Shown one piece after another: positions 8,757-11,883 of a DNA stretch of 32,236 nt. The stretch lies in the NCBI GenBank assembly GCA_019120455.1, contig DWVB01000052.1, positions 1-32,236 of the forward strand, in the 5' to 3' direction. How positions within the stretch are numbered: position 1 is the first letter of the stretch; each line of letters starts with the position of its first letter. The position numbers and the translations under genes are program-made. The stretch comes from Candidatus Avelusimicrobium excrementipullorum (GTDB lineage Bacteria > Elusimicrobiota > Elusimicrobia > Elusimicrobiales > Elusimicrobiaceae). The notes beneath the pieces were generated by a model. It had not been told where the DNA came from. It was given only the letters and a program-made list of their open reading frames with translations, and made no database searches.

Positions 8757-9875
8757 ATGAAAAAATTCCTGCTTGCTTTTTTTCTGGCTTGTTTTGCGCT
8801 GCCCGTCTGCGCCGAACAGGCTGTGCGCGTACTGCTGGCCGACGGCCTGAAAAGCGCACAGATACAAAACTCCGGCCTGGTGTATGTATACGCCAAAAAC
8901 AGCAAGAAAAAATATAAAGTCAGCAAGCCCGAAACCATCACCGTGCAGGCGCTGGGGGACGGCGAGCTGCGCATCGGCGCGCTAAAATATCAGGGGACTT
9001 TAGTCATTGAACCCTCCAAAAACGTCACGCTGACTTTTCAAAAAAACACCTATACGGGCAAACTCTACGCCGTGCCGAACGGCAAGACCTTTAAAATCAT
9101 AGAATACGCCGATATGGAAAATTACCTGCTGGGCGTATTGCCCTATGAAATGAGCCCTTCCTGGCCGCTGGAAGCCTTAAAGGCGCAGGCTGTGGCCGCG
9201 CGCACCTATACATTGATGGAAGTACAGCGGCGCAAAAACGCCGAATTTGACTTATATAATGATGTGCGCAGCCAAATGTATAAAGGCTCCGGCAAAGTGT
9301 ATGACAGCGTACGCCAGGCCGTCACCGCCACCGAAGGCCAAATTTTAACCTATAAAGGCAAGCCGTTTTACACCTATTACCACGCCAATTGCGGCGGCGG
9401 GACCGATGACGCCAAAAGCTGGACCGGCTCCAAAGAGGCCACGATAAAACCGCTGCAGGGGGCCTCCTGCTCCGCCGACAGCCACAGCAAAAGCTATTCC
9501 TGGACGCGCAAGGTGCCGCAAAAATCCATCAATAATTTTGTAAACAGAAACGGCCTGAAAGGTTCCGTCAAAAAAATAAAAGTAGCCAAAAAGAGCCGCA
9601 CCAAACGCGCCGAAACGCTGGAATTTACCACCTCCAGCGGCAAAAAAGAACTTTCCTGCCCCAAATTTCGCCTCTCCGTAGGCAGCAGCGTACTGCGCAG
9701 CTGCAAAATCACGGATATAGAGAAAACTTCGGGCGGGTTTACCTTCTCCGGCCGCGGATACGGGCACGGCGTGGGTCTGTGCCAGGACGGAGCCAAAGGC
9801 ATGGCCGAAGACGGCAAAAATTACAAAAAGATTTTGGCCAATTATTTTCCTTCTTCAGATATTACCAAACAATAA
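8757..9875 (+). CDS. Secreted SpoIID/LytB-domain peptidoglycan protein
   Basis: Predicted 372-residue exported protein. A signal peptide covers roughly residues 1-19 (MKKFLLAFFLACFALPVCA, cleavage after CA). The SpoIID/LytB domain follows, with the conserved YLLGVLPYEMSPSWPLEALK and AQAVAARTYTL; the Glu in PYEM corresponds to the catalytic Glu of SpoIID, a lytic transglycosylase acting on denuded glycan. Later conserved pieces are YHANCGGGTDDAKSWTG and the C-terminal GRGYGHGVGLCQDGAKGMAE. Family members also occur in non-sporulating bacteria, where they act in wall remodelling, so this is not evidence for spores. The ATG directly follows the ruvB TAA, and queA follows 2 nt after its stop, so it sits inside the ruv-queA operon. 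Confidence 0.9.
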   Translation: MKKFLLAFFLACFALPVCAEQAVRVLLADGLKSAQIQNSGLVYVYAKNSKKKYKVSKPETITVQALGDGELRIGALKYQGTLVIEPSKNVTLTFQKNTYTGKLYAVPNGKTFKIIEYADMENYLLGVLPYEMSPSWPLEALKAQAVAARTYTLMEVQRRKNAEFDLYNDVRSQMYKGSGKVYDSVRQAVTATEGQILTYKGKPFYTYYHANCGGGTDDAKSWTGSKEATIKPLQGASCSADSHSKSYSWTRKVPQKSINNFVNRNGLKGSVKKIKVAKKSRTKRAETLEFTTSSGKKELSCPKFRLSVGSSVLRSCKITDIEKTSGGFTFSGRGYGHGVGLCQDGAKGMAEDGKNYKKILANYFPSSDITKQ

Positions 9876-9877
9876 AT

Positions 9878-10912
9878 ATGGCATTTGAACGATTTAAAAA
9901 ATTTAACATTGATCCTCTCATCGCCAAGCAGCCCGCCACGCCGCGCGACAGCGCGCGCCTGATGGTTTTGCACCGCGACACGCAAACCATAGAACACCGC
10001 ATTTTCCGCGACATACATGAATATTTTAATGCCGGTGATGTGCTGGTGCTCAACAATACCAAAGTTTTCCCTGCCAAGCTGTTTGCACACAAAAAAACGG
10101 GCGGTAAAGTGGAAATTTTGCTCGTGCGCCCGCAAAAAGACCCGCATGTGTGGATGGTGCTGACGCGCGACTATAAAGAAAACGCGGAACTGGATTTCGG
10201 CGGCGGGTTAAGCGGCAAAATGCTGGGCAAAACCGAAAACAACGAAGTGCTGGTGCAGTTTAATCAGGAAGACATTTTGCCCTTCTGTCACGCGCACGGT
10301 TTGATGCCGCTGCCCGTATATATTGAAAAAGCGCGCAAGCACGAGGGCATGTCCCCCAGTCTGGCCGGTGATAAAGAACGCTACCAAACCGTGTACGCCA
10401 AATACGAGGGCTCCATCGCCGCACCGACGGCGGGATTTCATTTTACCGAAGAACTTTTACAGAAACTCAAAGACAAGGGAGTGCAAATCGCCTATATTAC
10501 CCTGCATGTGGGCTGGGGCACCTTTAAACCCCTGCGCGGAGAGCCGCAGCAGCACCATATGCTGGCCGAACTGGCCGAAGTGCCACCCGAAACGGCCGCG
10601 GCCGTCAATGCGGCGCGCGCGGCGGGAAAACGCGTTTTTTCCGTCGGCACCACCAGCACGCGCACGCTGGAAAGTTTCACCGAAAACGGCCTCACTTCCG
10701 CCGGAAAAAAATGGACGGACCTGTTTATTTACCCGGGATATCAATTTAAAGCCATAGACTGTTTTATTACCAATTTTCACTTTCCGGACTCCACCCCGCT
10801 GTGCATGGTAACAGCGTTTGCTTCGGAGGATTTTATATACCGCGCCTACAGCGAAGCGGTAGAAAAGAAATACCGTTTTTACTCGTTCGGCGACAGCATG
10901 TTGCTGTTGTAA
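9878..10912 (+). CDS. queA: QueA, tRNA preQ1 ribosyltransferase-isomerase
   Basis: S-adenosylmethionine:tRNA ribosyltransferase-isomerase, 344 residues, which transfers and isomerises the ribosyl moiety of AdoMet onto preQ1-modified tRNA to give epoxyqueuosine. The start at 9878 matches the family N-terminus; the frame is open further upstream but only by overlapping the preceding gene. Motifs seen: DVLVLNNTKVFPAKLFAHK, GKVEILLVRP, YAKYEGSIAAPTAGFHFTEELL, YITLHVGWGTFKPL and GTTSTRTLES, plus the C-terminal ITNFHFPDSTPLCMVTAFA. Its presence in an operon with ruvAB is common in bacteria. The partner gene tgt is about 1.3 kb downstream in a separate transcription unit. Confidence 0.97.
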   Translation: MAFERFKKFNIDPLIAKQPATPRDSARLMVLHRDTQTIEHRIFRDIHEYFNAGDVLVLNNTKVFPAKLFAHKKTGGKVEILLVRPQKDPHVWMVLTRDYKENAELDFGGGLSGKMLGKTENNEVLVQFNQEDILPFCHAHGLMPLPVYIEKARKHEGMSPSLAGDKERYQTVYAKYEGSIAAPTAGFHFTEELLQKLKDKGVQIAYITLHVGWGTFKPLRGEPQQHHMLAELAEVPPETAAAVNAARAAGKRVFSVGTTSTRTLESFTENGLTSAGKKWTDLFIYPGYQFKAIDCFITNFHFPDSTPLCMVTAFASEDFIYRAYSEAVEKKYRFYSFGDSMLLL

Positions 10913-10936
10913 GTCTGTCGGCCGAAATTTTATAAA
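10907..10936 (+). promoter_or_regulatory. Candidate promoter of the structured RNA
   Basis: TTGTAA (10907-10912, overlapping the queA stop), an 18-bp spacer and TATAAA (10931-10936). The start would fall near 10943, at the 5' edge of the long-range helix described for the downstream RNA. Confidence 0.5.
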
Positions 10937-10943
10937 ATAAGTT

Positions 10944-11184
10944 AGCTTTTTAAACAGGAGTTACAGTAAAGCTTAAACCAAGCTGAACCGACAATTTCAC
11001 TGTTTTTGGGACCGGACGCAAGTCCGGAGAGCTTCCGCCAGGAGGCATTCTTAACGTCCAAAAACAGTCGTTTGAGGCATAAGATTTCCGAGCTGATCCC
11101 TCGGAGGTTTTATGCCAAGTGTTTCCGTGCATAAGTTTATGCCCGGAGGCCACGGCTGTTATCTTTGGGTTACGTTAAGAAGCT
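10944..11184 (+). ncRNA. Large multibranched structured RNA or 5' leader, unassigned
   Basis: The 338-nt gap between queA and the yrbL-like gene folds by eye into a closed multibranch structure. The 5' end AGCTTTTTAA (10944-10953) pairs with TTAAGAAGCT (11175-11184), 10 bp with one G-U. Inside: hairpin AGCTT/AAGCT (10970-10984); an 11-bp helix ACTGTTTTTGG (10999-11009) / CCAAAAACAGT (11058-11068) enclosing CCGGAC-GCAA-GTCCGG (11012-11027) and GCTTCC-GCCA-GGAGGC (11031-11046); helix GGCATAA/TTATGCC (11076-11082/11110-11116) enclosing CCGAG/CTCGG; and a TCCG/CGGA-capped hairpin at 11124-11147. It does not look like RNase P, tmRNA, SRP or 6S RNA, nor any riboswitch I know. It could be a free ncRNA or a regulatory leader of the downstream gene. 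Confidence 0.65.
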
Positions 11185-11195
11185 CAGATTTAACG

Positions 11196-11213
11196 GCCGT
11201 TTTTAACGGCTTT
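11196..11213 (+). terminator. Weak terminator-like hairpin after the structured RNA
   Basis: GCCGTT (11196-11201)-TTT-AACGGC (11205-11210) followed by only three T residues. It could partly terminate the RNA or act as the expression platform before the gene at 11251. Confidence 0.4.
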
Positions 11214-11250
11214 CTCCCAAACGGTGCCTTGCCGGTCAAGGAGAACGCCC

Positions 11251-11883
11251 ATGTCAACTAATCCGCCTCCCATCTATCTGTCCCCCGGCGATTTTATCGC
11301 CAAAGGCAGCCACAAAAAATGTTTCCAGCATCCGCAGGATCCGGCCCGCTGCATTAAAATCCCCTACAACGCCCCCGGGGAAACCGATTTGCACCGCGAA
11401 GTGCATTATTTGACACGCGTGCTCAAACAGCGCGCCGCCCAAAGCGGCATTTTGCCCAAATACCACGGCAAAGTGCAAACCAACCTGGGAGAAGGACATG
11501 TATTTGATTTAATTCGTGATTTTGACGGAGAAATATCCCGCAGCCTGGCCCATGCGCTGGCCAGCGAAAGCCTGCTGCAAACGCGGTTTTACGGGCTGAA
11601 AAATGCGCTGGTGGCCCTGCGTGAAAGCATGTTCAAATACCAGATTATTTCCATGGCCATTTATCCGGAAAATATTTTGCTGCAAAGACTGAACCCGTAC
11701 GATTTCAAACTGATGTATATTAATGATATGGGCAGCGGGGCATTTCTTCCGCTGGAATATTATATCCCCGCCGCGGCGCACGCCAAAGTCAAGCGCCGCT
11801 GGAACCGCTTTATCCGCTCCCTGCTGCGCCAGTATGAACACCCCGCGGCGGCCGAACTGATGCGGGACATAAGTTTTATGTAA
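11251..11883 (+). CDS. YrbL-like (PhoP-regulated) kinase-fold protein
   Basis: Predicted 210-residue cytoplasmic protein resembling the YrbL family, named for a PhoP-regulated Escherichia coli gene of unknown biochemical role, with a distant protein-kinase-like fold. Seen here: a glycine-containing nucleotide-loop-like start GDFIAKGSHKKCFQHP with a following Lys in CIKIPYN, then REVHYLTRVLKQR, HVFDLIRDFDG, and a catalytic-loop-like region IYPENILLQRLNPYDFKLMYINDMGSG where the N/D pair is retained. The start is fixed by AAGGAG at 11238-11243; an in-frame ATG 27 nt upstream lacks one. It follows the structured RNA (10944-11184), which may be its leader. The molecular function is unknown. Confidence 0.75.
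   Translation: MSTNPPPIYLSPGDFIAKGSHKKCFQHPQDPARCIKIPYNAPGETDLHREVHYLTRVLKQRAAQSGILPKYHGKVQTNLGEGHVFDLIRDFDGEISRSLAHALASESLLQTRFYGLKNALVALRESMFKYQIISMAIYPENILLQRLNPYDFKLMYINDMGSGAFLPLEYYIPAAAHAKVKRRWNRFIRSLLRQYEHPAAAELMRDISFM

What the first reader, a model, noticed from the sequence alone, without database searches (positions are those of the whole stretch)
10944..11184. Large multibranched RNA of unknown class between queA and the yrbL-like gene
A 10-bp helix joins positions 10944-10953 to 11175-11184 and closes a domain with at least five internal helices, one of 11 perfect base pairs enclosing a GCAA-tetraloop hairpin and a second hairpin. A promoter-like pair begins right at the 5' edge. 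That degree of nested pairing in non-coding DNA is far beyond chance. I cannot match it to RNase P, tmRNA, SRP, 6S or a riboswitch class I know. It may be a new structured ncRNA or a ligand-sensing leader of the yrbL-like gene.
Basis: partly seen in the sequence, partly recalled or inferred. Interest (0 to 1): 0.7.

Follow-up and report, generated by a model that had tools for sequence, protein, structure and literature searches.

The report
New pilin-associated switch RNA family
The stretch before the yrbL-like gene is one copy of an undescribed family of about 200-base folded RNAs, found in gut and termite Elusimicrobiota in up to 127 copies per genome and mostly in front of pilin genes, which look built to stop or allow transcription of the next gene and may work in pairs.

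Summary
The conserved element is 11000-11204: a 10-bp P1 enclosing two hairpins, two more hairpins (P4, P5), and an intrinsic terminator (P6) whose loop pairs with a strand beside P1 (11048-11057 with 11172-11181). Rfam has no match. A covariance model finds it in 57 of 61 genomes of the genus, in sister genera and in another Elusimicrobiota family: 2 copies in the host genome, up to 127 elsewhere. In 101 further matches, 60 of 72 pairs show double-sided changes. In three high-copy genomes it lies about 38 nt before a same-strand gene, in 88 of 99 cases a type IV pilin gene, leaving little room for another promoter. Transcripts ending before the terminator's 3' strand fold into an antiterminator (P1 3' strand with P6 5' strand); full elements fold into P1 plus terminator. 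Best reading: a cis-acting transcription attenuator with unknown trigger. Unexpectedly, the P4 loop holds a palindrome in 31 of 36 distinct loop sequences, of many kinds, as in the HIV-1 dimerisation site, which predicts RNA homodimers. I found no published description in the library searched.

The parts
10907..10936 (+). promoter-like pair: TTGTAA (10907-10912), 18 nt, TATAAA (10931-10936); inferred start near 10942
   Evidence: sequence; an exact TATAAT lies within 110 nt upstream in 42 of 99 other copies against 19 in shuffles
10970..10984 (+). small 5' leader hairpin (AGCTT..AAGCT), variable among copies and absent in some
   Evidence: fold; sequences
11000..11067 (+). P1 domain: helix 11000-11009 with 11058-11067 enclosing hairpins P2 (11012-11027) and P3 (11031-11046)
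   Evidence: P1 99.7%, P2 89%, P3 94% of cells paired in further copies, P2 and P3 with double-sided changes
11048..11057 (+). PK strand TTCTTAACGT, pairs with the terminator loop 11172-11181
   Evidence: at least 8 bp with own loop in 96% of copies, 4% when permuted; 8 of 9 pairs with double-sided changes
11058..11070 (+). switch strand CCAAAAACAG+TCG: in P1, or (inferred) in the antiterminator with 11153-11169
   Evidence: alternative folds; the three bases outside P1 keep standard antiterminator pairs in 25, 25 and 23 of 25 copies
11076..11116 (+). P4 hairpin; apical loop CTGATCC (11093-11099) with palindrome GATC
11121..11150 (+). P5 hairpin, with a covarying basal R-Y pair in the family
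11153..11204 (+). P6 terminator: stem 11153-11171 with 11182-11199, loop 11172-11181 (PK partner), U-tract 11200-11204
11238..11243 (+). ribosome-binding site AAGGAG
   Evidence: sequence
11251..11883 (+). yrbL-like gene (PF10707), most likely start ATG 11251
   Evidence: Pfam; start from SD spacing

Best explanation
It is the 5' leader of the downstream gene and works as a cis-acting transcription attenuator. RNA polymerase starts near 10942 and makes P1 to P5. The strand made of PK, P1 3' and TCG can then pair with the emerging P6 5' strand and loop as one long antiterminator helix, so polymerase reads through; or P1 holds and P6 folds into a terminator, with the PK helix locking the terminator loop onto the P1 domain. 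The PK helix fits both states, so it acts as a pivot. Which state wins is presumably set by a signal acting on the P1 to P5 domain (ligand, protein or RNA partner; unknown). The palindromic P4 loop predicts that two leader RNAs kiss to form dimers, which may be part of the signal. Shown from sequence: the fold, the PK helix, the terminator, the position, the gene association, the palindromes. Inferred: transcription, switching, dimer formation, trigger.
For: Covariation over P1-P6 and PK. A terminator with U-tract ends the element, and the start codon follows at a median of 38 nt, too short for an ordinary separate promoter. All 99 copies examined in three genomes have a same-strand gene behind them. 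Transcripts ending before the terminator's 3' strand fold into the antiterminator in 110 of 152 copies, 145 if the P1 5' strand is blocked; full elements fold into P1 (144) plus P6 (142). The three bases after P1 that only the antiterminator uses keep standard pairs. Distant copies keep P1, PK, terminator and alternative pairing with different letters. The same gene types recur behind copies in different species: yrbL, zinc-ribbon protein, glycosyltransferase, pilins.
Against: No expression data. P1 3' and P6 5' are nearly invariant inside the family, so the antiterminator has almost no covariation of its own except in three distant copies, where the test is modest. In full-length folds the terminator is strongly favoured, so read-through needs a trigger that was not found. 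Most pilin genes in the genus lack the element.
Confidence: 0.7

Rival explanations
1. It is a stand-alone small RNA with its own promoter and terminator that acts in trans; its place before genes is incidental.
For: Promoter-like site and terminator frame a transcript of about 262 nt. Palindromic loops suggest RNA-RNA contacts.
Against: Fixed orientation and about 38 nt to the start codon in many unrelated genes, with little room for a second promoter; one copy per target gene rather than one per genome.
Confidence: 0.12
2. It acts mainly on translation or mRNA stability: read-through is constitutive and the fold, with strands near the ribosome-binding site, controls initiation or decay.
For: Copies of the P1 3' strand (CCAAARACAG) lie next to the ribosome-binding site, at most 1 mismatch in 17 of 99 copies against 0.6 expected, and could pair with a freed P1 5' strand.
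Against: The strong terminator hairpin with U-tract is conserved in nearly all copies, and the ribosome-binding-site copies are present in a minority only.
Confidence: 0.12
3. It is a mobile or repetitive DNA element (REP- or MITE-like) that carries a structured RNA by chance.
For: Copy number varies from 0 to 127 among species of one genus.
Against: Sampled copies within one genome are all different (39, 40 and 19 distinct PK strands of 39, 40 and 19) while the fold is kept; G-U far exceeds A-C (229 to 39), so selection acts on RNA of one strand; orientation and distance to the gene are constrained; no match in phage or plasmid collections.
Confidence: 0.05

Closest known systems
Terminator/antiterminator leader switches (riboswitches and attenuators in general)
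   Same: Large folded leader whose P1 3' strand can pair either with P1 5' or with the terminator 5' strand; terminator with U-tract before the ribosome-binding site.
   Different: No Rfam match; no ligand known; the terminator loop is tied to the P1 domain by a helix that also extends the antiterminator; up to 127 copies per genome.
c-di-GMP and cGAMP (GEMM) riboswitches before pilin genes, e.g. in Geobacter and Clostridioides
   Same: Leader RNAs in several copies, some before pilin genes (own knowledge; reviews found).
   Different: No sequence or structure match to any Rfam family; GGDEF genes occur in carriers and non-carriers alike.
T-box leaders
   Same: Large leader with terminator and antiterminator.
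   Different: No Rfam match; downstream genes are not aminoacyl-tRNA or amino-acid genes.
HIV-1 dimerisation initiation site (DIS) kissing loop (PMC4066764)
   Same: Hairpin loop with a central palindrome and a few flanking unpaired bases, e.g. AA-TTGCAA-G.
   Different: Bacterial leader, many different palindromes of 4 to 6 bp; dimer not demonstrated. Resemblance of working, not kinship.

Membership tests
Any Rfam 15 family | score above the curated threshold | tested here: not met
   best sub-threshold match 20.9 bits against a cut-off of 51.4
Transcription attenuator leader | intrinsic terminator between promoter and gene | tested here: met
   P6 plus U-tract conserved; median 38 nt to the start codon
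Transcription attenuator leader | mutually exclusive antiterminator | tested here: met
   predicted folds, pair counts; not tested experimentally
Transcription attenuator leader | regulated termination in the cell | not testable with these tools
   needs transcription data or assays
Riboswitch | binds a ligand directly | not testable with these tools
   no ligand candidate singled out; downstream genes are mixed
c-di-GMP / cGAMP riboswitch (GEMM) | match to the Rfam models | tested here: not met
   GGDEF presence does not discriminate
T-box leader | match to the Rfam T-box model | tested here: not met
Kissing-loop homodimer (DIS-like) | self-complementary apical loop kept through changes | tested here: met
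   31 of 36 distinct loops with a 4-mer and 22 with a 6-mer palindrome against 13.9 and 2.5 in shuffles
Kissing-loop homodimer (DIS-like) | dimer in solution or in cells | not testable with these tools
   needs native gels or probing
Mobile or REP-like repeat | near-identical copies independent of gene orientation | tested here: not met
   all sampled PK strands distinct within a genome; constrained orientation and distance

The most novel reading that the evidence does not exclude
A dimeric RNA switch: leader transcripts of many pilin genes pair with each other through self-complementary P4 loops, so that termination at each pilin gene depends on leader RNA dimers. A handful of palindrome types would make cross-talk groups among up to 127 leaders in one cell, while the private PK helix keeps each switch within its own molecule.
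Probability: 0.3. Interest if true: 0.92.

Novelty: new variant of a known kind. Interest (0 to 1): 0.8.

Why it matters
If right, this is among the most amplified leader RNA families per genome that I know of, attached to the large pilin repertoire of a little-studied gut phylum. It has two features that I know from no bacterial leader: a helix that serves both as pseudoknot lock on the terminator and as extension of the antiterminator, and a DIS-like palindromic loop kept through many different palindromes. It makes RNA dimerisation as a regulatory step in bacteria directly testable.

Tried and rejected
Outer helix 10944-10953/11175-11184: no support in other copies. Known Rfam class: none. 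Phage or plasmid origin: no match; viral-contig pattern hits gave only marginal partial matches, often on both strands, to P1-like inverted repeats. Avoidance of cross-pairing between PK strands within a genome: no difference from between genomes (2.57% against 2.53% with at least 8 bp). c-di-GMP as ligand: GGDEF proteins in carriers and non-carriers alike, undecided. Downstream strands complementary to the own terminator 3' side: significant but small on average (6.75 against 6.28 +/- 0.11), strong in a few copies. DNA-pattern matches in other phyla (Acinetobacter, Vibrio and others) did not score with the model. Literature searches found no description; most subscription papers and preprints are not covered.

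Full report
Observation. The 338 nt around the finding fold to -131.7 kcal/mol, 8.6 standard deviations below shuffles. Rfam 15 gives only tRNAs in the window, and nothing meaningful below threshold here. Neighbours are queA (9779-10912) and a YrbL-family gene (PF10707), followed by tgt.

Relatives. A DNA search found a second copy in the own genome, and 24 of 61 genomes searched (the own one and 60 relatives) had matches, nearly all in the same genus. Oriented, these share one architecture: CTGTTTTTGG...CCAAAAACAG (P1) around two hairpins; a strand just before the P1 3' side (PK); hairpins P4 and P5; and a terminator (P6) ending CCGTTTTT. Twenty-five copies were aligned and pairs counted for P1 to P6 plus PK: 91.8% standard pairs, 55 of 82 pairs with changes on both sides, no shuffle of 500 as good, slid versions near 40%. 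A model from this alignment (R1) applied to 101 matches fetched afterwards gave 93.5% paired and 60 of 72 pairs with double-sided changes; that alignment is fitted to the structure, so it leans towards it. G-U exceeds A-C 229 to 39, so the fold works as RNA of this strand.

Distribution. R1 finds the element in 57 of 61 genomes of the genus, in genus g15 and weakly in g12 of the same family, in one genome of family f2, and in a second family, f12, of the phylum. Other Elusimicrobiota families sampled gave no match at this sensitivity. Named records confirmed by R1 are Elusimicrobiota MAGs, many labelled rumen, colon, rectum or faeces, or unlabelled uncultured bacteria. Copy numbers: own genome 2, G064 50, G109 50, G084 127 in 1.7 Mb; some species of the genus have none.

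Genes. All 99 copies examined in three high-copy genomes have an ORF behind them on the same strand; the median distance from U-tract to start codon is 38 nt. Pilin-type N-termini follow in 40 of 40 (G084), 34 of 39 (G064) and 14 of 20 (G109). Elsewhere the same gene types recur: a 669-aa membrane protein, a zinc-ribbon membrane protein (also behind a distant copy in the closed genome G091), glycosyltransferases, lipoproteins. A yrbL homologue in G018, 36% identical to the window's protein, has its own copy 50 nt upstream. Pilin genes are abundant in the genus (22 to at least 150 per genome) and most lack the element; the own genome has 41 pilin matches and two elements, neither before a pilin.

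Alternative folds. The PK strand pairs with the own terminator loop (at least 8 bp) in 96% of copies against 4% for permuted partners, and within each genome sampled the PK sequences are all different. If a transcript ends before the terminator's 3' strand, the minimum-energy fold in 110 of 152 copies pairs [PK + P1 3' + TCG] with [P6 5' + loop] as one nested helix; with the P1 5' strand blocked this rises to 145. Complete elements return to P1 (144) plus P6 (142). The three bases after P1, which P1 does not use, keep their antiterminator pairs. In the distant copies L321 to L323 the letters differ but P1, PK, terminator and the alternative pairing remain; the own combination is best or nearly best in each, a modest test on three sequences. 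PK thus fits both states. I read this as a terminator/antiterminator switch with PK as pivot.

Dimer prediction. The P4 loop is palindromic: of 36 distinct loops 31 contain a 4-mer palindrome (13.9 +/- 2.7 in shuffled loops) and 22 a 6-mer (2.5 +/- 1.5); loops of P2, P3 and P5 hold no 6-mer, though they are shorter. At least ten palindromes occur (TAATTA, TTATAA, TCATGA, TTCGAA, TTGCAA, CTGCAG, CTCGAG, TCTAGA, GATC, AGCT). A palindrome requirement is what homodimeric kissing loops impose, as in HIV-1 DIS (PMC4066764); a review notes that functional RNA oligomers have rarely been observed in nature (PMC7357161). Distinct loops include neighbours that share a palindrome, so they are not all independent events. 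Whether dimers form, and what they do, is untested.

Other features. Behind the terminator, copies of the P1 3' strand sit beside the ribosome-binding site (at most 1 mismatch in 17 of 99; 0.6 expected), and some leaders carry a strand complementary to their own P6 3' side. In a read-through transcript these could capture the freed strands; this is inference.

Verdict. A new RNA family, cis-regulatory by position, probably an attenuator; trigger unknown. The window copy precedes a yrbL-like gene and is one of only two found in its genome.

Noticed in passing
11224-11251: The ORF list starts the yrbL-like gene at GTG 11224, but the ribosome-binding site AAGGAG (11238-11243) points to ATG 11251.
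   Followed up: partly
genus genomes, e.g. G003, G005, G010, G031, G084: Type IV pilin N-terminal domains (PF07963) are hugely expanded, 22 to at least 150 per 1.1-1.8 Mb genome, also in species with few or no RNA elements.
   Followed up: partly
L205, L206, L209, L211, L222, L229, L230 and others, 6-20 nt after the U-tract: A second copy of the P1 3' strand (CCAAARACAG) lies directly before the ribosome-binding site, far more often than expected.
   Followed up: partly
L322 (G091, closed 1.6-Mb genome of a sister genus) 1501-1670: A shortened distant form with a single hairpin between P1 and the terminator, whose loop also holds a palindrome (CTAG), before a zinc-ribbon gene; by size the genome may be Elusimicrobium minutum (inference), a cultured species.
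   Followed up: partly
L323 (G125, family f2) 1501-1662: A diverged copy with PK (CATGCTAG/CTAGCATG) and terminator in a family otherwise negative, suggesting that the class is wider than model R1 can see.
   Followed up: no
P5 base in all copies (window 11119-11152): A basal purine-pyrimidine pair of P5 with one bulged U covaries (G-C 82, A-U 43, G-U 9, A-C 2), with neighbouring bases nearly invariant.
   Followed up: partly
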